The position numbers and the translations under genes were made by a program. The notes beneath the pieces were generated by a model. It made no database searches. It had not been told where the DNA came from and saw only the letters and a list, made by a program, of their open reading frames with translations. A stretch of 64,000 nt of DNA from positions 1 through 64,000 of the forward strand of contig NZ_CAACVB010000009.1 in assembly GCF_900659635.1 (NCBI RefSeq). Reading direction: 5' to 3'. Each line of letters begins with the position of its first letter. Positions within the stretch are counted from its first letter, which is position 1. Origin of the DNA: Actinomadura roseirufa (GTDB lineage Bacteria; Actinomycetota; Actinomycetes; Streptosporangiales; Streptosporangiaceae). Below, one piece after another: positions 6,740 to 37,245 of this stretch.

Positions 6740-7485
6740 TCCATGTGGCCGCGGCCGGAGACCTGCACGTCGGGCCCGAGGAGGCCGCCGGAGCGTACCG
6801 GGAGCGGCTGGCGGGCCTCGCCGACCAGGCGGACGTCTTCCTGGTCGCCGGCGACCTGACCAGGCACGGGACGGTCGAGGAGGGCCGGGTCGCCGCGGCC
6901 GAGCTGCGCGACCTCGGGCTGCCCGTGATCGCGGTGCTCGGCAACCACGACTACCACTCCGACGCCCAGGAAGAGATCACCGGGCTGCTGCGGGACGCGG
7001 GCGTCACCGTCCTGGAGGGCGACGGCATCGTCCTGGAATGCGGCGGGAAACGGCTCGGGATCGCGGGCGGGAAGGGCTTCGGCGGCGGGTTCCAGGGCCG
7101 ATCCGCCAGCGACTTCGGCGAGCCGGAGATGAAGGCGTTCGCCGAGCACACCAGGGACTTCGCCGGACGGCTCGGCGCCGCGCTCCTGCGGCTGGACGCT
7201 GACGTACGGGTCTGTCTGACCCACTACGCCCCGGCCGAGGACACCCTTGAGGGCGAATCGCCGGAGATCTACCCGTTCCTCGGCAGCTACCTGATCGGTG
7301 AGGCGATCGACGCGGCGGACGCGTCGCTGGCGATCCACGGGCACGCCCACAAGGGAACGGAGAAGGGCCTCACCCAGGGCGGCGTGCACGTCCGCAACGT
7401 GGCGCTCCCCGTGATCCAGCACGCCTACGCGCTGTACTGCCTCGACACTGTGCTTGCTGCAATCCCGGCCCACTTCGCTCGCTAA
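6736..7485 (+). CDS. Calcineurin-like metallophosphoesterase
   Basis: 249 residues with the full metallophosphoesterase motif set: GDLHVG (residues ~8-13), GDLTRHG, GNHDYH, THYAP and HGHAHKG. These supply the Asp, His and Asn ligands of a two-metal centre. Such enzymes hydrolyse phosphomonoesters, phosphodiesters or nucleotides; the substrate cannot be assigned. The ATG at 6736 overlaps the BON gene stop and is preferred over a GTG nine bases upstream. It is the last gene of the three-gene operon, and a hairpin follows at 7537. Confidence 0.9.
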   Translation: MIHVAAAGDLHVGPEEAAGAYRERLAGLADQADVFLVAGDLTRHGTVEEGRVAAAELRDLGLPVIAVLGNHDYHSDAQEEITGLLRDAGVTVLEGDGIVLECGGKRLGIAGGKGFGGGFQGRSASDFGEPEMKAFAEHTRDFAGRLGAALLRLDADVRVCLTHYAPAEDTLEGESPEIYPFLGSYLIGEAIDAADASLAIHGHAHKGTEKGLTQGGVHVRNVALPVIQHAYALYCLDTVLAAIPAHFAR

Positions 7486-7536
7486 GGCTCGCTTCGTGAC
7501 CGTGCTTGTGCGAGCGCGAATCGCTTCGCGATCTTC

Positions 7537-7572
7537 CCGGCGGGGGCTCGCCTTCGGCGTCGCCCCCGCCGG
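7537..7572. terminator. Strong hairpin after metallophosphoesterase operon
   Basis: A perfect 11-bp stem, CCGGCGGGGGC at 7537-7547 with its complement at 7562-7572. The loop itself folds as CGCC-TTC-GGCG. It lies between the plus-strand operon and the converging topoisomerase gene and would act on both. There is no U-tract. Confidence 0.6.
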
Positions 7573-7636
7573 TCAGGTCGCGCGCTCGCGTGATGGCTGA
7601 GGGCCGCGCTTGTTTTGCTGGTTGGTCATGGCGTTA

Positions 7637-7807
7637 GGGGGCTGGGTCGCGGGTTTGTCGCGGCTCGCCTTCGGCTTCGTCATGTTGGTCAGGTCGTGTT
7701 CGGGTGACGGCTGGGGGGGCGAGCCTGTCCCGGTGGTCGGTTTCACGTGAGGGGGCTGGGGCGGGCGTTTGTCGCGGCCTGGCTTCGGCTTTGGTGTGTT
7801 GGTCAGG
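7637..7807. repeat. Degenerate 57-bp direct repeat, two copies
   Basis: Copy 1 at 7637-7693 and copy 2 at 7751-7807 share GGGGGCTGGG, TTTGTCGCGGC, CTTCGGCTT and TTGGTCAGG in the same order and spacing. The region 7486-7819 between the convergent genes holds only this repeat and the hairpin at 7537. No function is evident. Confidence 0.55.
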
Positions 7808-7819
7808 GCGCGAGGTCGG

Positions 7820-8824
7820 TCAGGTGTCGCGTAGGAGGTCTAGGACCGCGTGTTCCGCGGGGCCCTGTGTGGCCAGTTCGCCCGCGGAGGTGTCGACGCC
7901 GAGCGTGCCGAGGGTCGGCGCGATCGTCCGGCCGTTCTCGTACAGGTCGATGATCCGCGGGTCGATGTAGGAGGCGCGGGCGACGGCGGGGGTGTTGCCG
8001 AGGTAGCCGGCGACCTCCTTGACGACGCGGACGACGGCGCGCCTCGTCCCGTCGGCGTGCTCGGACACCGCGAGGCCGACGGCGGCGAGGACCGTGGCGT
8101 GCCAGGTCCGGAAGTCCTTGGCGGTGAAGTCGCCGCCGGTCACCTCGCGGACGAACGCGTTGATGTCGGACGTGGTGACATCGTGCCAGCCGGAGCGGGT
8201 CCGGTGGGCCAGCAGTTCGGGCGAGTCGTCCGCGCGGCGCGTGAGACCGGCGACGACCTTGCGCACCTCCTCCTCCGCGACCGAGCGGTGGAGCGGCTTG
8301 GCGCCCTTCGCCGGATACTCGAACACGATCTCGCGGCGGCCGCACGTGACGTGCTCGCGCAGCACGGTGGCGAGGCCGAAGGTGTTGTTCTCCGCCGCGT
8401 ACTCCTCGCCGCCGATCCGGAAGAACCCGAGGTCGATCAGCCGGACCGCGGCGGCCAGCACCCGCTCGCGTCCGTACCCCCGGCCGGCCAGGTGCCCGGC
8501 GAGCACGTCGCGCACCTTCGGCAGCCGCTCGGCGAGATCCAGGACGTGCTCGTGCTTCTCGCGGTCGCGCCGCTCCCGCCAGTCCGGGTGGTACAGGTAC
8601 TGGCGGCGGCCCGCGTCGTCGGTGCCGACCGCCTGGATGTGCCCGTCCGGGTCCGGGCAGATCCACACCTCGCGCCACGCGGGCGGGATGACCAGGGCCT
8701 TGATCCGCTTCTTCACCGCGGCGTCCGCCAGGGGACGGCCGTCCGCGCCGAGATAGCGGAAGCCGCGGCCGCATCTGCGCCGTCCTAAACCGGGCCCGGC
8801 CGGGTCGCTGCGCTGGAGCTCCAT
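7820..8824 (-). CDS. DNA topoisomerase IB (poxvirus-type)
   Basis: 334 residues. The N-terminal domain begins GFRYLGADGRPL and has IPPAWREVWICPDPDGHIQA, the typical opening of bacterial TopIB. The catalytic domain contains the KDFRTWHATV motif and the nucleophilic tyrosine in ARASYIDPRI (Tyr286). The enzyme relaxes supercoils through a 3'-phosphotyrosine intermediate without ATP. The length matches bacterial members. It ends 6 bp before nothing on its own strand and follows the SDR gene (8831-9679) closely, so the two are probably cotranscribed with the SDR first. Confidence 0.93.
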   Translation of the reverse strand: MELQRSDPAGPGLGRRRCGRGFRYLGADGRPLADAAVKKRIKALVIPPAWREVWICPDPDGHIQAVGTDDAGRRQYLYHPDWRERRDREKHEHVLDLAERLPKVRDVLAGHLAGRGYGRERVLAAAVRLIDLGFFRIGGEEYAAENNTFGLATVLREHVTCGRREIVFEYPAKGAKPLHRSVAEEEVRKVVAGLTRRADDSPELLAHRTRSGWHDVTTSDINAFVREVTGGDFTAKDFRTWHATVLAAVGLAVSEHADGTRRAVVRVVKEVAGYLGNTPAVARASYIDPRIIDLYENGRTIAPTLGTLGVDTSAGELATQGPAEHAVLDLLRDT

Positions 8825-8830
8825 CGCCGG

Positions 8831-9679
8831 TCAGCCGGGGTGGATCTCGCCGCCGGCGGGGACCAGCGTCTGGCCCGAGTAATAGGACGACAGCCGGTTG
8901 GAGGCGAAGAAGACGTAGGACGGCGCGATCTCGTCCGGGTCGGCCGCGCGGCCCATCGGCGCCTGCTCGCCGAAGCCCTCCACCCGCTCCTCGTCGAACG
9001 TCGCGGGGATCAGCGGCGTCCACACCGGGCCGGGCGCGACGCAGTTGACGCGGATCTCGCGGTCCATGAGGTTCTGCGCGAGCGATGTCGTCAGTGCCAT
9101 CGCCGCGGCCTTGCTCGCCGAGTAGTCGATCAGTGTCTTGTTGCCGCGCAGGCCGTTGATCGACCCGGTGACGACAATGGACGAGCCCGCGCCCAGATGG
9201 TCCAGCGCCGCCTGGACCGTCCAGAACAGCGCGAAGACGTTCACCTCGAACGTCCGGCGGAGCTGCGCGTCGTCGATCTCGCGGACGTCCTTGACCGGTG
9301 TCTGCGTGCCGTGGTGCAGGACGAGGACGTCCAGCCCGCCGAGGTCGCGGACGGCGTGCTCGACGACCTCGCGGCAGTGCCGCTCCTCGGCGAGGTCGCC
9401 GCCGAAGGTCACGCAGCGGCGTCCCGCCGCCTCGATGAGGTCGGCGGTGCGCCGGGCGTCGTCGTCCTCCTCCAGGTAGGTGATCGCGACGTCGGCGCCC
9501 TCCTTGGCGAACGCGACCGCGACCGCGCGGCCGATGCCCGAGTCGCCGCCGGTGATGAGGGCACGCCGCCCGTCCAGCAGGCCGCGTCCGGTGTAGTCGC
9601 GCATCTCGTCGCGCGGTTCGGGGGTCATCTCGCGGGTGCGCCCGGGGTAGGACTGGCTCTGCGCGGGGTGCTCGCTCAT
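8831..9679 (-). CDS. SDR family oxidoreductase (general stress protein 39/YhdG-like)
   Basis: 282 residues. Rossmann motif ALITGGDSGIGRAVAVAFAKEG, the DVLVLHHGTQ strand in place of the usual NNAG, the YSASK catalytic motif and the PGPVWTPLIPATF tail are those of the extended SDR group including Bacillus general stress protein 39. The N-terminal segment YPGRTREMTPEP also fits that group. NAD(P)H-dependent carbonyl reduction is likely; the substrate is unknown. The ATG at 9679 (MSEHPAQ) is chosen over an upstream in-frame ATG because family homology starts here. The topoisomerase gene follows 6 bp downstream. Confidence 0.88.
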   Translation of the reverse strand: MSEHPAQSQSYPGRTREMTPEPRDEMRDYTGRGLLDGRRALITGGDSGIGRAVAVAFAKEGADVAITYLEEDDDARRTADLIEAAGRRCVTFGGDLAEERHCREVVEHAVRDLGGLDVLVLHHGTQTPVKDVREIDDAQLRRTFEVNVFALFWTVQAALDHLGAGSSIVVTGSINGLRGNKTLIDYSASKAAAMALTTSLAQNLMDREIRVNCVAPGPVWTPLIPATFDEERVEGFGEQAPMGRAADPDEIAPSYVFFASNRLSSYYSGQTLVPAGGEIHPG

Positions 9680-12851: not shown

Positions 12852-15800
12852 TCAGCGGTGGAGGCCGCCGACCGAAGCGGTTCTCGGGTTGTCCTGGGAC
12901 AGGACGTACGACTTGCCTCCGAAGGTGAGGACGAAGTTGGACGGTGTGGAGATGGGCAACTGGTAGCTCAGCGCCACCTCGACGGACTGGCCGTTCGCGA
13001 TGGTCGTGGAGCTCGGGACGGTCAGGGTCGCCCTATGGAAGTCGCCCTTGAGGCCGCCGGTGTTGTTGCCGCTGTGGCCCGCCTGGACGGAGAGCGTCCA
13101 GCCCGACTGCTGCGTCATCGTGGCCGGGGCGGAGGTGCCATAGTCGAACTTGAAGACGGCGCCACCCGGGATGGTCTGGCCCGAGTTGTTGGTGATGCGC
13201 ATCTTCGGGGTGATGGGGTAGTTGTTGTCGCCGACGGGGAAGTTGACCAGGTCGACCTTCACGTTGAGGACGTCGGTCGGCATCGCGTGGTCGGACTTCT
13301 TGTTCTGGTACGGGCCGGCGTTCTTCAGGTTGTCGTTGATCAGGTTCGTCAGGGTGTTGCCGATGAAGTACTCGCCCTTGCCGCCGTTGCGGGCGGGGTC
13401 CCAGGCGTAGTCACCGGCGAGCTCCCAGAACATGACGCCGCCGATGCCCTTGTCGGCCACCCATTTGGCCTTGGTGGCGATGGACTGGTCGTCCTCGGTG
13501 GACAGGAACACCTTCTTGGTGCTGTTCCACAGCCACGGGGCGGCCATCGTGTTGTCGTACTGGCGGGTGTAGGTGCCGGTGAGCCGGTCGTCGGGGTCCT
13601 TGTCCGGGTCGAGACCGTAGTCGCGGATGTAGGTGCCCGGCAGGCCCTTCTCCAGGTTCTTGGCGTGCCACATCGGGTTGCTGCCCGACGCCTGTTCGAC
13701 GCCCTTGTCGTCGGTGTCGTGCCAGAGGTTGTCGAGGCCGATCGCGCCGTTGCCGCAGGGTGTCGAGGAGCCCACGCTGCTGCCGGTGCCCGGCGGGCAC
13801 TTGGTCTGGTCGGGTAGGGCGGCCTTGCCCCACAGTCCGTTCGTCCCGCCGGAGACACCCTGCCAGCCGCGGGTGTAGAACGGCACGCCGATGTTGATGC
13901 GTCCGGCCTGCATCGAGCCATGGAAGTAGTGGTAGGCCCAGTCGGTGTTCAGATAGCCCATTCCGTACGTGCTGTAGACCGCGCCGTCGACCTGCTCGTT
14001 GTCCTTGGCGTCGTCGAACAGGGCGGCGTTGGGGCCGACGAAGTGGTTCCACGAGCCGTGCAGGTCGTAGGTCATCAGGTTGGCGTAGTCCAGGTACGGG
14101 ACGACCTGGTAGGTGTCGTGCCCGCGCAGGATCCAGCCGGAGGCCGAGACGGCGGCGGTCAGCATGTAGTACTTGCCGTCGGCGGCGCTGGCCGCGTCCA
14201 GCTTCTCGCGCAGGGTCTTCATGAGCGCCACGTAGCCGGCCATCAGCTTGGCGCGCCGCGCGTTGGAGAAGGTGAAGTCGTCGGGGTGCCCGGCGAACTT
14301 CATCGACGTGGCGTACTCGTAGTCGATGTCGGCGCCGTTGAACCCGTACTGGCGCAGGAACGCCACGACGGAGTCGGCGAAGGTGTTGATGTTCGCCTGG
14401 CTGTCGGTGAGCGTGTAGAAGCCGCCGGACGCGACGCGCTTGCCGTTGTCGTCGAGGTAGCCGCCGCTCTCCGCCCAGCCGCCGATCGAGACCAGCGTCT
14501 TGACGTTCGGGTGCTGCTTCTTGAACTTGTTGAGCAGGTTGAAGTGGCCCTTGTACGAGTAGGCCGGGTCCATCTCCGCGCCGGGCACGTTCGGCCACTC
14601 TTCGCCGATCGACGGGTTGTTGGCCGAGTTCCCGCCGACGGAGACCTTGTTCTGGCCGTCGATGTGGGCGAAGGCGTAGTTGATGTGGGTCAGGTTGTTC
14701 CACGGGATGTCACTGGCGAGGTAGCGCGGCGCGCCGTTCTTGCCGTCCCGCCAGCTGGTGAAGTAGCCGATGGAACGGCGGTTGTGGCCCGCGCCCATCT
14801 TCTCGCGGCCGTCGTTGTCGTAGACGTCGCAGTACGGGGGCGTGACGCCCGGCGTCTGGTAGAGGCCGTCGGGACGGCAGCCGCCGGTGCCCGGGCCGAT
14901 GGTCGCGGTGACCTCGTTGCTGAGCTCGGAGGTCTGGCCGATGGTGTCCTTGGCGCGCACCGTGAACTTGTAGCTTCCCGCCGCCAGGCCGGAGACGGTG
15001 GTGGTCGTGCCGGTGACCGTCTGGACGACCGAGCCGTTCTGCAGCACGTCGTACCCGGCCACGCCCTTGTCGTCGGTCGAGGCGCCCCAGGCGAGGGACA
15101 CCGCGTCGCCGGTCGTCTTGGTGATCTTCAGCTCGCCGGGCTTGGACGGCGGAGCGTCCTCACCGCTGCCGGGGGTGGTGACGGTGATCGCGTCGCCGGC
15201 GGGCGAGACCTGGTCGGCGGTGTCACGGGCGCGCACGCTGAAGGCGTAGCGGTTGCCCGGGGTCAGGCCGCTGATCTTCGCGCTGGTGCCGGTGACGGTC
15301 GCGGCGACGGTGGTGCCGTTCAGGACGTCGTAGTTCTTGATGCCCTTGTCGTCGGTCGCGGCGTCCCAGGCCAGCGAGACCGAGGTGGAGGTGACCTCGG
15401 TGGTGCGGAGGTTGCCCGGCGTGCTCGGCGGGGCGTCCACGGACCCGCCCTCGCACGGCTGGCCGTCGAGCCGGCAGTTCTGCGGCTCGCCCAGCGTGCC
15501 GCTGTAGGAGACCAGGAACCCGAAGGTGGCGGTGGCGCCGGCGGCGACCGTGCCGTTGTAGTCCCGGTTGACGAACGTCTGGTGGTTGCCCGAGCTGGTG
15601 AGGACGGCGTCCCAGTAGGAGCCGACCTTCACCGTGGAGGCGAGGTCCAACTCCAGTTTCCAGCCGGACATCGAGGAGGTGCCGCCGTTGCTGATCGTAC
15701 AGGCGTACTGCGCGCCACCTCCCCATTCCTGGACGGTGCGGCAGGCGGCCGTCGGGCCGGCGGCGTTGGCGGGTGTGGTCAAGGCCAGGGAAAGGCCGAG

Positions 15801-17984: not shown

Positions 17985-20900
17985 TCACGCCGCAGATGGT
18001 TGAGGGCCGGTGACTGGTGCGTCCCCGAGGTCGAGCTGTTTGCTCATGTCGAGCTCGAACCGCCCGTACAGGTTGAGATGTGACCAGAAGAGGGCGGACA
18101 GGGCTCTCCGGTCGGCGTCGGTGAGTTTCTTCTGCCACTTCGGCTCGGCCAGCACGATCTGGACCATGCGGGTGTTGAGGTAGACGATCGCGGCCTGGAC
18201 CAGGTGCAACGCGAGCGCGGAGACTTCGACGTGCTCGCGGTCGTCGCCGGTGAGGTCGCCGGCCTTGCCGTAGAAGATGTCCTTGTTGGCGGAGTTCCAG
18301 TTCTCGACCACGTTGAGGCCCTCGTGGATCTCCCGGCGGAGTTCCTCTTCGGCGAGGTAGTCGCAGATGAACACGGTCCTGATCACGCGTCCGAGTTCCT
18401 CGATCGCGCGGTAGGTCGGGTGCTTGGGGCCGCCGCGGGTGAACCGGCGCAGCATCTGGTGGGCCTCGGCCGTTCCCAGCCGCAGCGCGGTCGCGTATTT
18501 GATCATCTGGTCGTACTGGTTGGAGATCAGCTCCCAGTCGATCGTCTTGCCCGACAGCACGGTGTCGAGCTGCGGCCACGCCTCGCCCTCGGTCAGGCCG
18601 GGCCGGTACAGGCGCGCGGACCCGATGTTCTTCAGCCGGGGCAGCAGCTTGAAGTCCAGCAAGTGGCTGAACGCGAACCCGACGATCGAAGCACCGTGCG
18701 TATCTGTGTACTGGCGGTCGATCTCCGCCGAGGTGAGGTGCCGGAGCAGGCCCTCGATCATCGAGGCGACCTCGGAGTCCGTGGTGGACCGGACCTGGGA
18801 GTAGATGCAGACGTTCTTCCGTTCGACGTGCCAGTACACCATGATCCCGGCGCCGCCGTACCGCTGGTGCCACTCGGTCATGTGGTTGGCCGACCAGGAT
18901 CCGAACTTGCGGGAGTCCGACGCGCACGCCGTCCCCGGCCCCCACAGCGAGACGTCGCGGGCGTCCAGGGTCTTGTTGACCACGGTGCGGATCGCGGCGC
19001 GCAGGTTGTCGCGGTTGACGAACAGGCGGCGGGTGCGGCGCAGCGCGACCTCGGTGTCGGCCTCCATCCCCGGGATCGCGGCGGTGCCGTCGGCGACCCG
19101 CTTGATGCCCATGTTCGTGCCGAGCCCGAACGTGCACAGCAGCAGCCGGCGGCGCAGCACGTCAGGATCGGTGACCGTGCGGGAGGCCACCGAGGTGAAC
19201 TCGGACGTGAACTCCGTGGCGTGGTCGACGTTCTTGATCAGGTCCAGGAGGTCGATGACGCCCCACCGGGAGGCGATCTCCTCTTTCAACTTCTGCAGGT
19301 TCTCCGGCTCGGGCTGCTTACCGATGGGCGGGACGCTGATCCACGGCTCGCCCTTCTTCTTCGTGATCTTCACGCCGCCGGTGGTGTTCTTCTTCAGCCC
19401 CTTGTTCAGCCGGTCCAGCGCGGCGACGTGCCGCTTCTTCAGATCGGCGATGAAGTCGGCGGGGTCGCGGGGCTTCTTCAGCGCCTCGTAGTGGACGTCC
19501 CGGTTGTCCTCGAAATCCTGCGGCAGGTCGTGGTCGGGGTTGCGCCAGGTGTTGCCGCCCTCCACCCAGATCTCCCGCCGGCGGATCGCCTTGCGCAGCG
19601 CGACCAGGACGCACAGCTCGTAGGGGATGCGCTCGACCAGCCAGGTGTCGGGGTCGACGACCGCTTCCTTCCAGTCCTCGGGCACCACGTGCTCGAACGG
19701 GACGACGTCGGAGGCTGCGTAGTAGTCCTCGTCGGAGTCGGCGTACCGGTCCAGCAGGTCCAGGGCGTCCATGACCGGCCGGAACACCTCGTTGTTACAT
19801 CCGAAGGTGACCGCCCGCAGCAGCTTGGGCAGCCCCCTGCGGTAGTGGTGGGAGTAGGAGCCGCGCAGCTTGGTCCGCACCCGGGTGTTGAACTGCTTCT
19901 CGTTCGCCTTGGCCTCGGCGAGGATGTCCTCCAAAGTGCGCTTGCCGACCACCGGATACAGGGCGGTGCGGACGATCTCCTCCGGCATGGCCAGCGCCGC
20001 GGTCGCGAGCTTCACCAGGATCCCGTTCTTGCCCGCCACCCGCCGGAACTCCGCGTTCAGCTCGCCCTCGACCTTCTTCTCCGCCCGCACACTGATCTTG
20101 TGCACGAGCTGGATCAGCAGCTCGACCAGGCCGTCGGTGATCTCGGCCTGGCGGACGTGGCACAGCGCGGCCAGCAGCGTGATCCGGATCGGCTGCGGCG
20201 CCGCCTCGAAGTCCGAGGGGTACATCTTCATCGCCCGGGCCCGCCACCCCGCCACGACCTTCTCCGACACCCCCTCGAACAACCCTGCGGGCAGGCCGAT
20301 CGCGTTCACCCGCTCCAGTTTCACGATCTCCGCCAGCAGCGTGTCCAGCTGGACCGCGCCCGGATCCTCCTTCAACTCCTGTAGGAACGCCCGCCCGGCC
20401 GCCGCCTTGGCCGCCTGCTCCGCGCCGTCCCCGGCGCTCTGACCCTCGCCTGCGGCGTCCGCGGCGGGGCTCTCGACGACGATCAGCTCCTCCAGCTTGC
20501 CGACCGACGTCGCCGACAGCCGGTCCACGGTCCGCTCGGTGAAGTGCCGCTCGAACATCGACTCCGCGCTGCCCAGGACCCGTTCGATCCGGGTCGTCTT
20601 CGGCGGCTCGATCTTCTCCTCGCGGCACCGCGTCAGCAACGCCGACCGCAGCCGGTCCCGCGACATCTCCACCGGGCAGATCTTCTCGGCCAGCCAGTCC
20701 GCGAGCTTGTCCTCATCGCCCACCGTCGGCTCACGGAACCCGTGGTAGTCCCGGACCTGCGCCCGGTGGTTCTTGATCGTCCGCCCGGACCAGTCGTAGG
20801 CGGCGAACAGCTCCGCGTCGACCTTCACCTGCCCGGCCATGAACTCCACCGCCGCCCGCGGGATGTCCTCCCGGCGCGGGAACCTCGCCTCCAGCTCGAA

Positions 20901-21023
20901 GAACTTGAGCATCAACCCGAACCCCAGCCGCGTCGCCCCGGTCTTGTTCGCCAGCAGGGCGACCTCCTCCGGATCCAGCGTCCAGCACTCGATCAGGTCT
21001 TCCAGCTCCCACTCACGCTTCAC
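17985..21023 (-). CDS. tnpA: Tn3 family transposase
   Basis: 1012 residues, full length for the family. The N-terminal DUF4158-type domain starts [14 protein letters not shown]. The C-terminal catalytic domain has the DDE triad: Asp in [12 protein letters not shown] (~702), Asp in QYTDTHGAS (~774) and Glu in [10 protein letters not shown] (~904). It catalyses replicative transposition by single-strand cleavage at inverted repeats. No frameshift is visible, so the protein may be active in trans even though element A has lost one end. It is clearly related to, but distinct from, the transposase of B (30705-33699). Confidence 0.95.
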
Positions 21024-21397: not shown

Positions 21398-21495
21398 GGC
21401 CCGCGAGGAGGCTGAGTGCGGAAAATAGCGGTAGGCCGTGCGGGCGCCCGTACGCTGCCGGAATGATCTTGGGGCTATCCGGAACACTTGAGGGC

Positions 21496-26223: not shown

Positions 26224-26396
26224 CCCTGATTTACGAAACGGAACTGGTACGTAACGAAAATAGGGTCGGGCGGGGGAGCCGGTCAAGGCCTCCGATTCCC
26301 GAAGCTGTCCTGAGCCACAAAGTGGAGTCTTTTGCGCAGGTCGGCCCGCGAGGAGGATCGGAACGACCAGTAGCGACAGGCGGCTGACGCCGACGG

Positions 26397-27350
26397 TCAG
26401 CGGGGGTGTCGGCGAGCGGCGGAGTCGGTATCTGCGGTGACGCGGGCGGAGGTGTGTTCGCCGAGGCGGACGTAGGCGCCGAGGCTGGCCAGGTGGGCGT
26501 GGCGGGACTTGGCTTGGAGTTCGGCGGCGGTGCGGCCGGCGGCCGCGAGGTGCTGCAGCGCGGAGTGGCGCAGCTGGTGGAGCGTCCATCCGTTGCCGTG
26601 CGGGTCGAGGACGCGGGTGGCGGTCTTGAACAGGTACTCGGCGCGGGGGTAGGAGAGTCGGCCGTGTCCGGTGGTCGGGCAGATGTCGGCGGCCGCGGGC
26701 GCGCGGGGTCCGGTGGTGGGGGCGCGGCGGTCTGCCAGGAACACCGGCCCGGCGGTGCGGCCTTTGAGTAGGCGGGGTAGCAGCCGTGCGGTTCCGGTGG
26801 CCCAGTGCACGTACTCGATCGCGCCGCCCTTGGAGACCACCCGGGCGCGGCGGAACTCGGGGTCCAGATCCTCGACATTGAGGGAGAGGATCTCTTCGGC
26901 GCGGGCGGCGGTCTCGTACAGCATCCGCCACAGCACCCGCTCGCGCAGCCCGTGCGCGTCATCGCCGAGCAGCTTGTCCAGCCGGGCACGCGGGACGGCG
27001 CGGTCACCGCGACGGGCGGGCTTGCGGCGGGTCAGCCGCCGCGCCGGGTTGGTGGCCAGCAGCTCCTGGCGCTGCGCCCAGGTGGTGAACGAGGTGAGCG
27101 CCGACAGGTGCCGGTTCCAGGTGGCGGCCGCCGCGCCGTTCCACCGCTGCATCACCGCGGCGAAGTCCTCGGGTGCCAGGTCGGCGACCGGGCTGGCGCC
27201 GCCGGCGACGTCGATCAGCCGGGCGAGGGTGTCGTCGTAGCTGGCGCGGGTGGTGAGGACCGGGATCTGATCGAGGTAGCGGTCGATGGCGGCTGCGAGG
27301 GTGCAGGCGCCGGATGGGCTCGGCCGGCCGGGGAACGCTACGACGGGCAC
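26397..27350 (-). CDS. Tyrosine recombinase (phage-integrase family)
   Basis: 317 residues. It has an N-terminal SAM-like core-binding domain (~17-105) and a catalytic domain with the complete tyrosine-recombinase set: Arg150 in ETAARAEE, Lys174 in VVSKGG, His258 and Arg261 in LHQLRHS, His284 in SRHAH and Tyr293 in LGAYVRLG. It cuts and rejoins DNA through a 3'-phosphotyrosine. It is divergent from the Ser/Thr kinase gene, and the 150 bp between them hold two inverted repeats. No attachment-site pair was recognised, so its substrate is unknown. Confidence 0.92.
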
Positions 27351-27367
27351 CGGTGACCTCCGCGGGG

Positions 27368-27384
27368 GTTATGTGACACATAAC
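27368..27384. promoter_or_regulatory. Perfect 17-bp palindrome upstream of the recombinase gene
   Basis: GTTATGTGACACATAAC is perfectly symmetrical about its central A, 18 bp upstream of the recombinase start. It is a strong candidate operator or recombinase/excisionase site. Confidence 0.6.
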
Positions 27385-27448
27385 GTTGCCGACTCGCTTG
27401 CGCCGCGGCGGATGGCGAGCTGGGCGAAGGGGAGCCAACGTGGGCCAG

Positions 27449-27478
27449 TGTGACAGGTAATGCAGATTCCCTGTCACA
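27449..27478. promoter_or_regulatory. Inverted repeat upstream of the kinase gene
   Basis: Arms TGTGACAGG (27449-27457) and CCTGTCACA (27470-27478), 9 bp, perfect, with a 12-bp spacer. The arm TGTGACA resembles the half-site in the 17-bp palindrome at 27368, so one protein may bind both. Confidence 0.55.
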
Positions 27479-27498
27479 TCTGATCGTCCCTGGCTACG

Positions 27499-29556
27499 GT
27501 GATTGGTGTGAGGACGGGGATGGTGCTGGCTCAGCGGTACCGGCTAGACCGACTGCTGGGCCGGGGCGCGATGGGCCAGGTGTGGGCCGGGTTCGACGAG
27601 CGGTTACGCCGGCGGGTGGCGGTGAAGCTGATGCTGGCTGATCTGCTGGGCCACGACCGGCGGTCCCAGGAGGTGCTGGTGCGGTTCCGGCGGGAGGCCG
27701 AGGCCGCGGCCCGATTGTCTCACCCCAATATCACCACCATCCACGACATGGGCGAACACCGCGAGATACGCGGCGATGCGGAATGGATCCACCCCTACCT
27801 GGTACTGGAACTCCTGGACGGCAGGGACCTGAGGACCGTGCTGGCCGGGTGCCCGGGAGGCTTGCCGGTGACGGAGGCGCTGGAGTATGGGGCGCAGGTC
27901 TGCGACGGCCTGGCCGCAGCGCACGCTGCCGGGGTCGTGCACCGCGACATCAAACCCGCCAATCTCATGTTGCTGGCGGACGGGACGGTGAAGATCTCCG
28001 ACTTCGGGATCGCCTGCCTCAGCGATGGCACCGCGATGTACGTCGGCCGCGCCCAGATCGGGACTCCGGCCTACATGGCGCCCGAGCAACTCGACGGCCG
28101 AGAACTCGACGGCCGCGCCGACCTGTACGCGCTGGGCGCCACGTTCTACCACCTGCTCACCGGCAAGACCGTCTTTCCCGCCAACGACCTCCAGGTCCTG
28201 GCCTACCAGCACGCGGCCAAGACACCCGATCCGCCCAGCGCCCTGCGCTCTGGCATCGATGCCGACATCGACCGGCTGATCGGCTCCTTGCTCGCCAAAC
28301 ATCCCGACGGGCGGCCCGCCGATGCCTCCCGGGCAGCCGTGGGCTTTCGTGCCGTCGCCGCTCGCCCCCGCCATCATCGCTTGGCCGAGGCCGAGCGCCT
28401 CGCCCGTGTTTGCGTCGATCCCGAAGCCCAGTCGCGTGCGTTGATGAAGGTCGCAAAGGTCATCGTCGGCCACGAGCCAGATCGCTCACGGACCCTGCTG
28501 ACCGATGCCGAGCGCATCGCCCGATCCATCACCCATCCGCCCTCGCAGGCTGCAACGTTGCGGGATATCGCGGAGGTGGTCGCCGAACACGATGCGGACG
28601 ACGCCGAGCACATCGCCCGCTCTATCACCGAGCCCGTCCGGCAAGCACAAGCGTTGGCGAAGGTCGCCAAGGTGGTGGCAGGACGCGACCTGAGGCGAGC
28701 CCGGAAGCTGCTGACCGAAACCGAGCACGCCGCGCTCTCCCTCACTGGGTGGCAGCGGGCAGTTGCATTACAGGGTGTCGCCGAGGTGGTCGCCGAACAC
28801 GATGCGGACGACGCCGAACGCATCGCCGGATCCATCACCGAATCTGACTACCGGGCAATGGCGTTGGCGAAGGTCGCCAAGGTGGTGGCGGGACGCGACC
28901 GCCAGCGGGCCCGGAGACTCCTGGGCAACGCCGAGCGCATCGCTGGCTCGGCGGGCCGGCCCCACGAAATCGGGTTCGCCTTGACGGCTGTCGCCGTGGT
29001 GGTTGCCGAGCACGACCCGCAGTGGGCGGAACGCATCGCCCGATCCATCATCAGCTCTGATTACCAGGCGGCGGCTTTGAGGGATACCGCCAAGGTGATC
29101 GCCGAGTACGACCCGAGCCGGGCTGGACGCATCGCCCGATCTATCGCTGATTCTCCTTACGATCACCCGGCGTGGGTGCTGGCCAAGATCGCCCCCGTGG
29201 TCGCCCGGCACGACGTCGTCGAAGCCGAGCGCGTCGCCCGATCCATCACCATGCCTCTTGCCCGAGCAGAAGCGCTGTGCGGGATCGCTGAAGCGGTGGC
29301 AGGGCACGATCCGGGCCGGGCGCGCAAGCTCTGGGCCGACGCCGAACACGCCGCGCGGGTCGACTCCAACGATCCGGGGTTGGGGTTGACGGGGGTCGCC
29401 CCGTCGGTTGCCGGACACGACCTACCATGGGCCGAACGCATCGCCCGCTCTATACCCCCCCTCATCTTCGGGGGAGAGAAGGCTGTTTGGGGCGATATCG
29501 CCGAGGTGATCGCCAGGCAGTGCTGCTCCCCTTCCAGCCACGGACACGGCCGCTGA
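27499..29556 (+). CDS. Ser/Thr protein kinase with long helical-repeat C-terminal domain
   Basis: 685 residues. The kinase domain (~10-280) has the glycine loop LGRGAMGQVW (20-29), Lys43 in AVKL, HRDIKPAN (Asp150, an RD kinase), DFG (168-170) and YMAPEQ. From ~residue 285 to the end there are about eleven copies of a 31-38 residue helical unit of the form AERIARSIT-x-QAxALxxIAxVVAxHDxxRA. No membrane segment, PASTA or sensor domain is present, so it is cytosolic. The kinase is bacterial STPK type; the repeat tail is probably an alpha-solenoid scaffold. Start GTG 27499 is used; GTG 27508 or ATG 27520 are alternatives. It sits divergent from a tyrosine recombinase inside mobile DNA. Confidence 0.9.
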   Translation: MIGVRTGMVLAQRYRLDRLLGRGAMGQVWAGFDERLRRRVAVKLMLADLLGHDRRSQEVLVRFRREAEAAARLSHPNITTIHDMGEHREIRGDAEWIHPYLVLELLDGRDLRTVLAGCPGGLPVTEALEYGAQVCDGLAAAHAAGVVHRDIKPANLMLLADGTVKISDFGIACLSDGTAMYVGRAQIGTPAYMAPEQLDGRELDGRADLYALGATFYHLLTGKTVFPANDLQVLAYQHAAKTPDPPSALRSGIDADIDRLIGSLLAKHPDGRPADASRAAVGFRAVAARPRHHRLAEAERLARVCVDPEAQSRALMKVAKVIVGHEPDRSRTLLTDAERIARSITHPPSQAATLRDIAEVVAEHDADDAEHIARSITEPVRQAQALAKVAKVVAGRDLRRARKLLTETEHAALSLTGWQRAVALQGVAEVVAEHDADDAERIAGSITESDYRAMALAKVAKVVAGRDRQRARRLLGNAERIAGSAGRPHEIGFALTAVAVVVAEHDPQWAERIARSIISSDYQAAALRDTAKVIAEYDPSRAGRIARSIADSPYDHPAWVLAKIAPVVARHDVVEAERVARSITMPLARAEALCGIAEAVAGHDPGRARKLWADAEHAARVDSNDPGLGLTGVAPSVAGHDLPWAERIARSIPPLIFGGEKAVWGDIAEVIARQCCSPSSHGHGR
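28573..28992 (+). repeat. Tandem 210-bp (70-codon) internal duplication in the kinase tail
   Basis: Units 28573-28782 and 28783-28992 both begin GAGGTGGTCGCCGAACACGA and share the later block GCGTTGGCGAAGGTCGCCAA. The conserved nucleotide identity over parts of the units shows recent duplication within the solenoid; other repeats have diverged. Confidence 0.75.
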
Positions 29557-29885: not shown

Positions 29886-30568
29886 TCAGTGTTCCTCGCT
29901 GGAGTCATGGAAGGCGCGCAGGCCAGCGGCGACTTCAGCGCGGGTGAAGGCGTAGCGGCCCAGGAAGTTGATGTGCTCGTAGGCGATGGGCGAGAGCCGG
30001 GCGCACATGGCGTCGGTGGCGGGGAACCCGTCCGCCCGGATCTTTTCGACAGCGGCGTCCAGGTAGAGGGTGTTCCACCACACCACCGCGTTCAGGGCGA
30101 GGCCGAGCGCACCGAGCTGGTCCTCCATCCCTTCGCGGTAGCGCTGGCGGAGCTGGCCGCGGTTGCCGAAGGCGATCCGGCGCGCGAGGCGGTGGCGGGC
30201 CTCCTGGGTGTTGAGCTGGGTGCCGATCATGCGGCGGTAGACGTCATCGGACATGAACTGCAGCAGGTGCAGGGTCTTGAAGATCCGGCCATAGTGCGCG
30301 AACGCGTCGCCCAGGCCGGTGGGGCGGCCGTCGTGTGACAGCATCCGGATCAGGTCGTAGGCGCGTACGGTGCCGGTGGTGAGCGAGCCTGCGACGCGCA
30401 GCATGTCGGCCCAGTGCGCGCGGATGCGGTTCAGGCGGACGGTGTGGCGGGACATGTGGTCCAGCGGCCCGTAGGTGGCGTGGGTGTTGGTGCGCCACAG
30501 GCGGGTGTCGGCGAGGTCGGCGATGCGCGGGGAGAACTGGTAGCCGCAGATGGCGAACAGGCCGAACA
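29886..30568 (-). pseudogene. C-terminal part of Tn3-family transposase C, split by transposon B
   Basis: Encodes the last ~225 residues of a Tn3 transposase: FGLFAICGYQFSPRIADL, TRLWRTNTHATYGPL, LNAVVWWNTLYLDAAV and the HINFLGRYAF tail. The 5' side is interrupted exactly at the left inverted repeat of transposon B. Removing B and one copy of the GAACA duplication joins it in frame to the fragment at 36644-37245, giving SYSDIVFG-LFAICGYQF. Confidence 0.93.
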
Positions 30569-30605
30569 GGCCCTGTAGTCCCAGCTCGGACACCAGCCGC
30601 AAGGT
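30569..30605 (+). repeat. Left terminal inverted repeat of transposon B
   Basis: 37 bp, begins GGCCCTGTAGTCC and ends CAGCCGCAAGGT. It pairs with 36607-36643 with four mismatches. Confidence 0.93.
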
Positions 30606-30704: not shown

Positions 30705-33699
30705 GTGGGTGTGCGTCAGGAGTGGTTGCCGGAAGACGTGGTGGCGTGCTGGACGCTGGTGGACGGCGACTGGGATCTGGTGGCGAACAAGACTGGGGCC
30801 ACACGGCTCGGCTTCAGCCTGTTGCTGAAGTTCTTCGAGATGGAGGGCCGGTTCCCCGATCTTCTGGAGGAGGTCCCGCAGGCCGCCGTGGAGTACGTCG
30901 CCGGACTGGTGAAGGTCCCAGCCGAGGACTTCACGAAGTACGCCCTGGTGGGCCGCACGGCTGAGTACCACCGCAAACAGATCCGGGAGGCGCTGAAGTT
31001 CCGGCCGGCGACGCTGGAGGACGAGGAACAGCTGACCGCGTGGCTGGCTGCGGAGGTGTGCCCGGTCGAGCTGGTTGAGGGCCGCCAGCGGGAGGCCCTG
31101 CTCGTGGAGTGCCGGGCAAGGAAGATCGAGCCGCCGGGCCGGACCCGGATCGAGAAAGTGCTGGTTGCGTCCCGCAACCGGTGGGAGAAGGTGTTCTGCA
31201 CGCGGACCATCGAGCGCCTGGGCGACGCGGGCACGACCCGGCTGCTGACGCTGGTGGCGGAGGACAACGAGGACGGTGCCGCCCTGCTGGCCTTGCTCAA
31301 GCGCGACCCGGGCGCGGTCGGTCTGGACTCGCTGCTGACCGAGATCACCAAACTGAACGACGTGCGCAAACTCGGCTTGCCCGACGGGTTATTCGCGGAC
31401 TGCTCGGAGAAGCTGCTGGCCGCATGGCGGTCGCGGGGCGATCAAGATGTACCCGTCGGACTTCCGTGACACCGCCGAGGAAGCGCGGATCACGCTGCTT
31501 GCGGCGTTGTGCTCCTCCCGGCAGGCGGAGATCACCGACGCGCTGGTGGACCTGCTGATCGCCCTGGTGCAGAAGATCAATGCCCGTGCTGAGCGGCGGG
31601 TGGAGAAGCAGCTCGCTGCGGAGCTGAAGAAGGTCCGCGGGAAGGAAGGCATCCTCTTCAAGCTGGCCGACGCGGCGATCGGCAAGCCCGACGAGGTGGT
31701 GCGCACAGCTCTGTACCCGGTCGTCGGGGAGAAGACGCTGCGCGACCTGGTGGCCGAGGCGAAGGCGAACGAGAGGGTGTTCAAGGCCAAGGTCCGCACC
31801 ACCCTGCGGTCGTCGTACAGCTCGTACTACCGGCAGATGCTGCCGCCGCTGTTGAGAACGCTGGGGTTCAAGTGCGACAACACCGCCTACCGGCCGGTGA
31901 TGGACGCGCTCGCGCTGCTGGAGAAGTACGCCGGGGTCGACGGCAAGACTCGCTTCTACGACGCCGCCGACGAGGTGCCGATGGACGGGGTCGTGCGCAG
32001 GGACTGGCGCGAGGCCGTCGTGGACGACAAGGGCAAGGTCGAGCGCATCCCGTACGAGCTGTGCGTCCTGGTGGCGCTGCGGGACGCGATCCGGCGCCGG
32101 GAAATCTACATCGAGGGCGGCCTTCGCTGGCGCAACCCCGAGGACGACCTGCCCGGCGACTTCGAGGCCACCCGCACCGTGCACTACGCAGCGATCCGCC
32201 GGCCCATGGACCCCGAGGCGTTCATCGCCGACCTGAAGCGGCGGATGACCGCCGGCCTGGACCGGCTCGCGGCCGCACTGGCGGACGGCTCGGCGGGCGG
32301 GGTGAAGGTGACCACGCGGCACGGCGAGCCGTGGATCACTGTGCCGAAGCTGGAGAAGCTGGACGAGCCCACCGGCCTCCAGGCGCTCAAGGAGGAGGTC
32401 GTACGCCGCTGGGGCGTGCTCGACCTCCTGGACGTGCTGAAGAACGCCGACTTCGACACCGGCTTCACCGACGAATTCGCCTCGGTCGCCGCGTACGAGC
32501 GCATCGACCGCGCCACCCTCCAGCGCCGGCTCCTGCTTGCCCTGTTCGCGCTCGGCACGAACATGGGCATCCGCGCGATCGTGGCGTCCGGCGAGCACAG
32601 CGAGACTGAGGCCGCGCTGCGGCACGTGCGCCGCCACTTCATCACCGTCGACAACCTCCGGGCCGCGGTCACCCGACTGGTGAACGCCACCTTCGCCGCC
32701 CGCGACGCCGCATGGTGGGGACAGGGCACGGCGTGCGCCTCGGACTCGAAGAAGTTCGGCTCCTGGTCGTCCAACTTCATGACCGAGTACCACGCCCGCT
32801 ACGGCGGCAACGGCGTGATGATCTACTGGCACGTCGAGCGCAAGAACGTCTGCATTTACTCCCAGCTCAAGAGCTGTTCGTCGTCCGAGGTCGCGGCGAT
32901 GATCGAGGGACTGCTGCGGCACTGCACCGATGCCGAGATCGAGTCCAACTACGTCGACACGCACGGTGCCTCGGTGGTCGGGTTCGCCTTCACCGAGCTG
33001 CTGAACTTCCGGCTACTGCCCCGGCTGAAGAACATCGGCAGCATCCGCCTGTACCGGCCGAACGACGACCCGCCCGGTTGGCCGGCCCTCGGCACCTCGC
33101 TGACCCGGCCGATCCGCTGGGACCTGATCGAGCAGCAGTACGACCAGATGGTCAAGTACGCCACCGCCCTGCGCCTGGGCACTACGGAGGCCGAGCAGGT
33201 GCTGCGGCGCTTCACCCGCGGCGGACCGAAGCACCCCACCTACCAGGCGCTCGAAGAACTCGGCCGAGCCGTACGTACGATCTTCGCGTGCGATTACCTG
33301 GCCAGTCCCGACCTGCGGCGTGAGATCCACGGTGGGCTCCAGGTCGTGGAGAACTGGAACAGCGCGAACACCGTCATCCACTACGGCAAGGACGGCGCAC
33401 TGACCGGCCCGGACAAGGAACACGCCGAGACCTCGATGCTCGCCCTGCACCTGCTCCAGTCCTCGCTCGTCTACCTCAAGACCCTGCTGCTTCAGCAGGT
33501 CCTCGCCGAACCGGCCTGGGCGAAGAAGCTGACGGATGAGGACCGGCGCGGACTGACCGCGCTGTTCTGGTCGAACATCAACCCGTACGGCACGTTCCGC
33601 CTCGACATGGACAAGAGGCTCGATTTGTCGTCCGCCACGGTGCCTGTCCCGCGCCGTGCGGCGGACGACGCTGCCCGCCCGGCGGGCTCGGCTCCATGA
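30705..33699 (+). pseudogene. tnpA: Tn3 family transposase of transposon B, single frameshift
   Basis: Two overlapping frames together encode a ~997-residue transposase. The first runs from GTG 30705 (MGVRQEWLPEDVV) to about residue 244, the second from there to 33699. The shift is an extra G in the GGGG run at 31435-31438: dropping one G restores [13 protein letters not shown], as in transposase A ([13 protein letters not shown]). The DDE residues are present ([29 protein letters not shown]). It is either a real inactivating mutation or a sequencing error in a short homopolymer. No slippery heptamer or stop-proximal signal suggests programmed shifting. Confidence 0.9.
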
Positions 33700-36606: not shown

Positions 36607-36643
36607 ACCTTGCGGCTGGTGTCTGAGCTAGGACTCCGGGGCC
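36607..36643 (-). repeat. Right terminal inverted repeat of transposon B
   Basis: 37 bp, complement of 30569-30605 with four mismatches, followed directly by the GAACA target duplication at 36644-36648. Confidence 0.93.
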
Positions 36644-37245
36644 GAACACGATGTCGGAGTAGGAGGCGGTGTCGGTCACCACGGTCTCGGGGCGGGATCC
36701 GCCGTCGATGGTGTGGATGGCGTCCAGGATGAACAGCGAGTCGCGCAGCGTGCCGGGCACGACCAGGCCGCCGATGCCCATCACCTGGTCGTTGACCACG
36801 TTCAGCCAGGTCGCGCCGCGCTGGCGGCCGAAGTAGATCGGGTTGTGGCCGGAGTGCAGGTTGGCGCCCGGGACCACGAACCGCAGCCCATCGGCCGAGG
36901 CGATCTGCCCGCCGCCCCAGGGGCGCACGATGTCGACCCCGGCCTGGGCGGTGATCAGGCGAGCGTTGGCCGCCGAGATCGTCTCGGCGCGCAGGTATCC
37001 CTGGTCGACCTGCTGGAGGCGGGCACGGGTGAGGGCGGGCACGTTCGGCTTCTCGATCGGCACCAGGCCGACGTTGTACGCCTCGGCCACCAGCACCCCA
37101 CACAGACTGACCGCGAAGTCCTCCAACGCGGGGTCGGCGCCGGAGATGTGGGTGAAGTCGGCGGCCAGCCCGGTCCGGTCGAACACCTCCAGCAGCAGCT
37201 CGGGGAAGTCCATCCGCGGCAGCATCTGACCGATCAGGGGGCACG
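36644..37245 (-). pseudogene. Central part of Tn3-family transposase C
   Basis: About 200 residues of a Tn3 transposase: MLPRMDFPELLLEVFDRTGL, FVVPGANLHSGHNPIYFGRQ, WLNVVNDQVMGIGGLVVPGT and TVVTDTASYSDIVFG, where transposon B interrupts it. The N-terminal half (some 500 residues) is absent: the frame begins near 37245, only about 50 bp from the resolvase stop. So element C was defective from a deletion as well as from the insertion of B. Confidence 0.92.

What the first reader, a model, noticed from the sequence alone, without database searches (positions are those of the whole stretch)
27499..29556. Ser/Thr kinase fused to an ~11-unit helical solenoid beside a tyrosine recombinase
The repeat unit AERIARSIT...ALxxIAxVVAxHD is regular, partly from recent tandem duplication of 70 codons, and replaces the usual sensor/TM domains. 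Kinases with repeat scaffolds in mobile DNA can act in defence or conflict. The kinase is divergent from a recombinase across two palindromes with related TGTGACA half-sites. The combination is unusual and could be a regulated island module; function is inference.
Basis: partly seen in the sequence, partly recalled or inferred. Interest (0 to 1): 0.66.

Follow-up and report, generated by a model that had tools for sequence, protein, structure and literature searches.

The report
Transposon-borne kinase with helical repeats
A protein kinase with an eleven-unit helical repeat domain of the kind that caps some bacterial immune-type proteins is carried as cargo beside the recombination site of a broken jumping element; this is a new variation on known parts, with a possible but unproven role in defence.

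Summary
ORF 27499-29556 (homologous start 27508) encodes a Ser/Thr kinase with all catalytic motifs plus 11 predicted helical hairpins, partly built by a 210-nt spaced duplication. The recombinase and both palindromes are real, but they are a unit of their own: they look like the resolution module (TnpI-like tyrosine recombinase, core palindrome, accessory half-site) of a Tn3-family transposon. 17 of 18 recombinase loci aligned keep both sites; in 13 of 16 the match to the window stops in or just past the core, with other cargo beyond. The kinase is the cargo here; the transposase is split by a second Tn3 and truncated. The recombinase-kinase pair does not recur (0 of 10 kinase relatives; 0 of 17 other recombinase loci). 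Yet 2 of those 10 kinases keep a core-like palindrome at their promoter; 37 other kinase upstream regions do not. The window repeat reaches no Pfam cut-off. A related solenoid caps TIR-, EAD1- and HTH-STAND ATPases, and 2 of 8 repeat-kinase relatives adjoin restriction or HmaA genes. A defence role is plausible, unproven. Verdict: new variant of known kinds.

The parts
26343..26358 (+). left terminal inverted-repeat remnant of the transposon (16 nt identical to the IR of relative L196)
   Evidence: colinear with L196 IRL 7486-7524; only the outer 16 nt are conserved
26397..27350 (-). TnpI-like tyrosine recombinase (317 aa), presumed resolvase of the transposon
   Evidence: (PF00589); 89% identical to the L196 protein
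27369..27383 (.). accessory half-site (direct repeat of the core's left arm); the conserved form is GATGTGACACATAAYGTTGCCGAG, and two local bases make it palindromic here
   Evidence: recognisable in 20 of 21 aligned loci (17 of 18 with a recombinase)
27449..27478 (.). core recombination palindrome IR1-IR2 (13-nt arms, 4-nt centre); border between transposon skeleton and cargo
27472..27500 (+). predicted kinase promoter: -35 TGTCAC inside IR2, 17 nt, -10 TACGGT (27495-27500); leaderless start expected
   Evidence: read from sequence; same arrangement in L014 and L128. Inference
27508..29556 (+). Ser/Thr kinase with C-terminal solenoid (682 aa; ORF opens at 27499)
27538..28320 (+). kinase domain, catalytic motifs present
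28372..29526 (+). 11-hairpin solenoid, TPR-like by shape (residues 289-673)
28545..28943 (+). tandem duplication, two copies 210 nt apart, 76-84% identical
29886..30602 (-). 3' part of the transposon's own Tn3-type tnpA (homology to L196 over 29892-30568)
   Evidence: 91% to L196
30577..36635 (.). second Tn3-type element inserted in tnpA (inverted repeats 30577-30605 and 36607-36635, 27 of 29 identical; its tnpA 30705-33699)
36640..37242 (-). middle part of the first tnpA; no further match to L196 was found in the window
   Evidence: 94% to L196 11553-12155

Best explanation
The kinase is cargo of a broken Tn3-family transposon. The recombinase and the two palindromic sites are the transposon's TnpI-type resolution module: the recombinase binds the core palindrome (27449-27478) and an accessory half-site (27369-27383) and would resolve the fused replicons made by transposition. 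The kinase is read outward from this module, from a promoter whose -35 box is the outer arm of the core, so recombinase binding should also hold kinase expression down (inferred). The kinase is a soluble, active-type enzyme whose sensor is an 11-hairpin TPR-like solenoid, related to the solenoid that caps TIR/EAD1/HTH-STAND ATPases in actinomycetes. Most likely (inferred) the solenoid binds a cue of invasion or stress and switches on phosphorylation of host targets, so the transposon carries a conflict or stress-response kinase. Shown here by sequence: transposon context, site architecture, catalytic motifs, predicted fold, solenoid similarity. Inferred: resolution activity, promoter use and repression, ligand sensing, defence.
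For: Relative L196 (same genus): IRs 7486-7524 and 13912-13950 bracket an 89%-identical recombinase, the same kind of core, other cargo and tnpA. In L201, 53-nt IRs bracket tnpA and the recombinase; IRs of that type lie 0.1-0.8 kb past the recombinase stop in 6 further loci (L198, L200, L202, L206, L207, L211). A Rhodococcus plasmid record annotates a Tn3 transposase 17 bp from a 43%-identical recombinase. Core and half-site are both present in 17 of 18 recombinase loci aligned; the match to the window ends at 27461-27483 in 13 of 16; cargo differs. tnpA remnants 91% and 94% identical to L196 flank a second Tn3. L014 and L128 kinases have core-like palindromes at 17.4 and 31.1 bits against at most -8.9 in 37 other kinase upstream regions. 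Solenoid profile matches in 8 of the 393 other genomes searched in the class, E down to 8.7e-55, on STAND proteins with TIR_2/EAD1/HTH N-termini. Two of 8 repeat-kinase relatives beside a type ISP restriction enzyme or HmaA.
Against: No transposase or recombinase match near 10 of 10 kinase relatives, so cargo status is shown once only. The right IR and the 5' part of tnpA were not found, and the left IR keeps only 16 nt. The accessory site is one copy about 80 bp from the core, unlike Tn4430 with two direct repeats. In at least 9 of the 19 loci the nearest gene that I called points towards the core, so an outward promoter is not a general feature of the module. 5 of 16 fetched recombinase loci show no Tn3 transposase match. 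6 of 8 repeat-kinase relatives show no clear defence neighbour (PADLOC was run on 6 chosen neighbours in 4 of the 8 loci; the rest by eye; an IrrE-like neighbour in L224 gave a weak capP hit, 2.8e-6). PD-T4-6 hits of the kinase are unspecific (5 of 5 control kinases alike). The solenoid similarity carries large composition-bias corrections, and one of 8 STAND proteins (L258) was not matched by the window repeat alone. Repeat kinases do not form one clade in the tree. Relatives with HSP70 fit general stress signalling as well. No expression, binding or phage data.
Confidence: 0.62

Rival explanations
1. The kinase is an ordinary regulatory or stress kinase of an actinomycete that hitch-hikes in the transposon; its solenoid is a general protein-interaction scaffold and it has no role in defence.
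For: The genome gives 59 Pkinase matches; relatives carry HSP70 or, by plasmid annotation, TPR in place of the solenoid; 6 of 8 repeat-kinase relatives have no clear defence neighbour; none of the 10 cargo proteins scanned from 9 loci is a named defence family.
Against: Outside the kinases the 8 solenoid proteins that I looked at are STAND-type, seven of them tested, five with TIR/EAD1/HTH N-termini, and two relatives adjoin restriction/HmaA genes.
Confidence: 0.33
2. The palindromes are operators for a host regulator that controls kinase and recombinase together; their resemblance to recombination sites is secondary.
For: The core lies in the kinase promoter at the same distance in the window and L014, and L014's genome has no close recombinase (three matches, 30-37% identical).
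Against: Core and accessory site stay with the recombinase in 17 of 18 loci while cargo changes; the genome assembly has one exact such palindrome, odd for a host regulon.
Confidence: 0.08
3. The kinase was joined to the transposon by TnpI-mediated recombination at the core site, i.e. the core is a docking port for cargo cassettes.
For: Skeleton homology stops in or just past the core; L014 and L128 kinases carry core-like sites without a transposon in the stretch held; L210 and L214 share cargo-side DNA from the first base after the core while their left sides gave no blastn match.
Against: L214 has lost its recombinase, which by itself weakens the left-side comparison; 4 of the 11 pairs that share cargo-side DNA share the left side as well over that border, as plain copies would; deletion, homologous exchange or decay could give the same borders; no circular cassette or second flanking core was seen.
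Confidence: 0.2

Closest known systems
Tn3-family transposons with a TnpI tyrosine recombinase and irs site (Tn4430, Tn5401; PMC7157771, passages seen)
   Same: Tn3 DDE transposase, terminal inverted repeats (in relatives), tyrosine recombinase, site upstream of the recombinase with an inverted-repeat core plus accessory half-site; promoters inside the site are reported for Tn5401
   Different: One accessory copy about 80 bp from the core; recombinase near the element's end, cargo on the far side of the core; found in actinomycetes. No sequence comparison with the Bacillus TnpI was made
Actinobacterial PknB/StpK7-like Ser/Thr kinases
   Same: Kinase domain (NF033483 269 bits, NF052427 173 bits)
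   Different: Below both cut-offs (450 and 900); no TM helix; solenoid instead of PASTA
STAND_TPR conflict ATPases (PADLOC PDLC01173) with TIR/EAD1/HTH N-termini
   Same: Related C-terminal helical solenoid
   Different: No P-loop ATPase in the window protein; the kinase takes its place
Toxin-antitoxin cargo next to res sites in Tn3 transposons (PMC7157771, passages seen)
   Same: Cargo gene beside the resolution site, potentially regulated by the resolvase
   Different: Cargo is a single large kinase, not a toxin-antitoxin pair
S/T/Y kinases in VMAP/iSTAND conflict systems (PMC7159879, PMC8195603, passages seen)
   Same: Actinobacterial kinases in conflict settings with repeat superstructures
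   Different: Most kinases there are said to have disrupted catalytic residues; here the motifs are intact. MoxR-vWA partners were not searched for
TON_1535 of Thermococcus onnurineus (PDB 3zpj)
   Same: Best natural solved relative of the solenoid by sequence profile (E=5e-6) and first in Foldseek (E=9.1e-5)
   Different: Archaeal, a solenoid alone; function not given in the output

Membership tests
Tn3-family transposon | Tn3 DDE transposase | tested here: met
   PF01526 E=3.7e-74 for 29886-30602; further part at 36640-37242; gene is broken
Tn3-family transposon | Terminal inverted repeats on both sides | tested here: inconclusive
   Left end keeps 16 nt at 26343; right end not found; both present in relative L196
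Tn3-family transposon | 5-bp target duplication | not tested
   Right end not found
TnpI/irs resolution module | Tyrosine recombinase | tested here: met
   PF00589 E=3.7e-13; R, HxxR and Y motifs read by eye
TnpI/irs resolution module | Inverted-repeat core upstream of the recombinase plus accessory half-site | tested here: met
   Both in 17 of 18 recombinase loci aligned
TnpI/irs resolution module | Two direct repeats DR1 and DR2 as in Tn4430 | tested here: not met
   One accessory copy about 80 bp away; hence called TnpI-like, not filed as a Tn4430-type irs
TnpI/irs resolution module | Cointegrate resolution at the core | not testable with these tools
   Needs in vitro or in vivo recombination
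PknB-type PASTA kinase | Full-length model score with PASTA repeats | tested here: not met
   269 bits against cut-off 450, match ends at residue 293; no PASTA model matched
PD-T4-6 defence kinase | Specific match to the family | tested here: inconclusive
   E=8.2e-86, but 5 of 5 control kinases match alike
TPR family (Pfam) | Match to a TPR model | tested here: not met
   No TPR model up to E=1 for the window repeat; 3 of 7 STAND relatives match TPR models
TPR/PPR-like solenoid fold | Structural match to solved TPR/PPR proteins | tested here: inconclusive
   Best Z 15.1 (designed PPR, rmsd 9.1 over 315) and 13.8 (OGT TPR, rmsd 20.7 over 330); the tool warns that about 13 is common for repeats
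STAND_TPR conflict ATPase | P-loop STAND ATPase with this solenoid | tested here: not met
   Solenoid related, no ATPase model matched

The most novel reading that the evidence does not exclude
The TnpI-type core is a cargo port. Kinase genes of this group move as units that carry, or dock at, the core, whose outer arm becomes their promoter, so the transposon's recombinase both installs the gene and gates its expression. Kinases left behind without the transposon keep the site (L014, L128). The kinase is then a mobile immune-type sensor in which a kinase replaces the STAND ATPase under a shared solenoid, held off by the recombinase and released when the element enters a cell that lacks it.
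Probability: 0.17. Interest if true: 0.75.

Novelty: new variant of a known kind. Interest (0 to 1): 0.5.

Why it matters
It links three things usually studied apart: Tn3-type resolution sites, actinomycete Ser/Thr kinases, and the sensor-position solenoids of immune-type STAND proteins. If the solenoid senses invaders, the same sensor feeds either an ATPase-TIR switch or a phosphorylation switch, which can be tested by domain swap. If the core site gates the kinase, a resolvase is also the repressor of its cargo.

Tried and rejected
Regulated recombinase-kinase module: rejected, because the sites follow the recombinase and not the kinase and the pair did not recur.

PADLOC PD-T4-6 label: rejected as unspecific.

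Own-genome copies: the recombinase has only one distant match (30%). A second kinase with similar repeats on contig C100 is diverged and cut by an IS. Neither helped the function question.

Phage records: no match for the recombinase. Plasmid records: none where one place covers 80% of the kinase protein; four Streptomyces plasmid kinases of 57-58% domain identity, two of them annotated as TPR proteins, lack the core.

Foldseek of the whole model gave mixed kinase and solenoid hits. No AlphaFold DB was on hand. The kinase half of the model is poor (2 sequences in the alignment), so nothing was drawn from it. The solenoid was not folded alone.

Kinase tree (21 domains that I chose): the three core-bearing kinases fall in three places, but support next to the window is weak (0.46), so the number of acquisitions is open. 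Against a single family: the repeat kinases L226 and L130 group with an own-genome kinase L010, and L129 with other kinases, so 'relatives' here means best matches, not one clade.

Limits of the searches: the genome search scored only the best few first-look candidates per genome (7, 4), so all genome tallies are lower bounds; lists were cut. G066 comes (E=2.3e-89, just outside the limit).

Dropped rows: L205 has neither site and is the one miss of 18. L213-L215 were picked for the palindrome, so for them only the half-site counts as a finding; L212 was not in the alignment; L205 and L209 were not. In one search, 8 of 46 loci given (L108, L110, L113, L002, L004, L008, L042, L045) printed no row because the start motif was not found, and L127 and L130 were done; the 37 others are rows, not loci (L003 and L041 give two each, L135, L269 and L270 are near copies). 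The score matrix used 13 recombinase-linked and 3 palindrome-picked cores, not the window. G592 (231-aa frame) was not examined and L258 was left out of the Pfam and PADLOC scans for size. L223 is the same locus as L014 and was counted once.

One other member of the repeat alignment matched Pfam Spectrin at 7.6e-7 (cut-off not shown); taken as a coiled-helix look-alike, not followed.

No control for the defence-neighbour rate was run; 2 of 8 is suggestive only.

Papers: the listings showed no title or abstract start about a kinase as TnpI-transposon cargo or this solenoid on kinases; the queries did not cover every wording. PMC7157771, PMC7159879 and PMC8195603 were seen as passages; all others only as search listings. 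Most subscription papers are not held.
Full report
What is there. The ORF at 27499-29556 is real. Alignment to a 53%-identical protein of Actinomadura sp. NBRC 104425 (L014) puts the start at GTG 27508. Residues 14-274 of the ORF are a protein kinase (PF00069, E=1.5e-42) with the catalytic motifs and no sign of a membrane helix. Residues 289-673 (counted from 27508) are predicted as 22 helices, 11 hairpins, in units of 32-39 residues. A 210-nt spaced duplication (84% over 128 nt, 76% over 189 nt) made part of it.

The recombinase side. The divergent gene 26397-27350 is a tyrosine recombinase. Relatives are common in the family: at least 141 of 298 genomes have a match at E<=1e-30, many of the listed ones under 60% identical. 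I fetched 16 recombinase loci (L196-L211) and 4 loci chosen for the palindrome (L212-L215), and one plasmid record with a mer operon (L133). Upstream sequences of 21 loci (window, L133, L196-L211, L213-L215) were aligned. Two elements are conserved: GATGTGACACATAAYGTTGCCGAG near the recombinase start and a 30-nt core TGTGACAG(A/G)TAAT-N4-(A/G)TTC..TGTCACA. 17 of the 18 loci with a recombinase have both (L205 has neither; L133's core is 31 nt; L209's is shortened), and so do the 3 palindrome-picked loci. The window's first palindrome is the first element; two local bases make it palindromic. The first element repeats the core's left arm directly, an arrangement that fits a tyrosine-recombinase resolution site.

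The transposon. L196 (same genus, 89% identical recombinase) has inverted repeats at 7486-7524 and 13912-13950 (84% over 37 nt) that bracket the recombinase, the core, a methyltransferase, an APH-family gene and a Tn3-type transposase that reads in two frames. The window matches L196 in three blocks: 26335-27478 (84%), 29892-30568 (91%) and 36640-37242 (94%). The last two are one transposase gene split by a second Tn3-type element with its own repeats (30577-30605 and 36607-36635, 27 of 29 identical). The window keeps the outer 16 nt of the left repeat at 26343. In L201, 53-nt repeats bracket another tnpA and its recombinase, and repeats of that type lie 0.1-0.8 kb past the recombinase in L198, L200, L202, L206, L207 and L211. 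A Tn3 transposase match lies somewhere in the fetched stretch of 11 of the 16 loci L196-L211 and not in L133, up to several kb away and not always in the same element. A Rhodococcus plasmid record annotates 'Tn3 family transposase' 17 bp from a 43%-identical recombinase.

The core is the border of the cargo. In 13 of 16 loci the DNA match to the window stops between 27461 and 27483, in or just past the core (L198, L205 and L210 stop earlier). Beyond it come different genes: mercury resistance, methyltransferase, APH, hydrolases, a sigma factor, a desaturase, a histidine kinase, an oxidoreductase, WYL and BTAD regulators (10 proteins from 9 loci). In at least 9 of the 19 loci the nearest gene that I called points towards the core, so an outward promoter cannot be a general rule. 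Of 231 pairs of 22 core-bearing loci, 11 share cargo-side DNA: three are the kinases window, L014 and L128; four share both sides as plain copies would (L200-L202 and the three pairs among L204, L208 and L212); three match only in part (L197-L201 in the first 104 nt, L198-L207 and L201-L208 at shifted places). L210 and L214 share it from the first base after the core with no blastn match on the left, where L214 has lost the recombinase.

The kinase and the core. A weight matrix from 16 cores (window excluded) scores the window 48.8, L128 31.1 and L014 17.4 bits, and no other kinase upstream region above -8.9 (37 rows). L014 and L128 were fetched for their kinases, not for the site. Neither has a recombinase or transposase match in its stretch. 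L014's genome has only recombinases of 30-37% identity; L128's genome does have relatives (4 matches), one of them a degraded close copy beside another core (L262). In all three a TACGGT box follows 17 nt after the TGTCAC or TTTCAC arm, which fits a promoter whose -35 box is the core's outer arm. TACGGT also occurs near other kinases (L268, L226, L010), so the -10 box alone is not transposon-specific.

The kinase relatives. A search of 341 genomes of the family, plus G066, gives 10 relatives, a lower bound because only the best candidates per genome were scored: 8 with the repeats (L014, L125, L126, L127, L129, L130, L224, L226) and 2 with HSP70 instead (L128 by Pfam; L225 read by eye). They are best matches, not one clade: in a tree of 21 kinase domains L129, L130 and L226 fall elsewhere. 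None of the 10 has the recombinase or a matching Tn3 transposase in the stretch held, 6.9-19 kb. Of the 17 other recombinase loci none has the related kinase; L196 has a 34% kinase outside its repeats. So the pair occurs once.

The solenoid. For the window protein no Pfam or NCBIfam model reaches its cut-off in this region. A profile of four repeats finds it in 9 of 394 genomes of the class, own included, although TPR proteins in general are widespread (established knowledge). I looked at 8 proteins from 7 of these genomes. All seven scanned match PADLOC STAND_TPR (E<=4.5e-106), with TIR_2 (2), EAD1 (2) or HTH (1) at the N-terminus. The window repeat alone matches 7 of the 8 (E 7e-17 to 5e-44, with large composition-bias corrections) and not L258. 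The fold resembles TPR/PPR solenoids (best Z 15.1), which for repeats is not strong by the tool's own guide. The best natural solved relative by sequence is TON_1535 (E=5e-6).

Defence? L126's kinase starts about 100 bp downstream of HmaA (1275 bits) on the same strand, with a DpdE/DrmD-like gene beyond. L125's follows a type ISP restriction enzyme (2218 bits) by about 1.4 kb. For the other six I saw no clear defence neighbour: L014 (2 neighbours scanned, none), L224 (1 scanned, weak capP hit at 2.8e-6), L127, L129, L130 and L226 by eye only. No control rate was run. The kinase's own PADLOC label is unspecific. In print, conflict systems of actinobacteria do use S/T kinases, mostly with broken active sites (PMC7159879, passages); this one has its motifs intact.

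Reading. The transposon and site reading rests on several independent lines, and I hold it at about 0.85. Gating of the kinase by the recombinase is inferred from overlap and from the reported role of TnpI in Tn5401 (PMC7157771, passages). The sensor-kinase-in-conflict reading is about 0.4. The whole statement is given 0.62 as a compromise. What is new is the combination: a kinase under a STAND-type solenoid, as cargo at a TnpI-type core, with core-like sites kept by two relatives that have no transposon in the stretch held.

Noticed in passing
window 17985-21023 and 21398-21434: Another Tn3-type transposase (23% to the L196 tnpA) and a 37-nt copy of the L196-type inverted repeat; the region is layered with Tn3 elements.
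   Followed up: partly
window 51624-52156: Tandem array of a 36-nt unit, about 15 copies, 78% matches.
   Followed up: no
L124 331-3118 (own genome, contig C100): Diverged kinase with similar repeats cut in two by an insertion sequence.
   Followed up: partly
L125 10063-11279: An IS3-type insertion (read by eye) lies inside the repeat domain of the G123 kinase; more repeats resume at 11341.
   Followed up: no
L128 8285-10648 and L225 about 6971-9142: Same kinase domain fused to an HSP70 chaperone (Pfam for L128, by eye for L225); unusual and worth its own look.
   Followed up: partly
window 30705-33699: The second Tn3 transposase is coded in two overlapping frames (30705-31469 and 31447-33699); L196's tnpA also needs two frames. 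Frameshift or programmed slip not decided.
   Followed up: no
L213 8505-8534, L214 8062-8091, L262 1501-1530: Core sites with the recombinase absent (L213, L214) or degraded (L262); possible landing scars of TnpI-type elements.
   Followed up: partly
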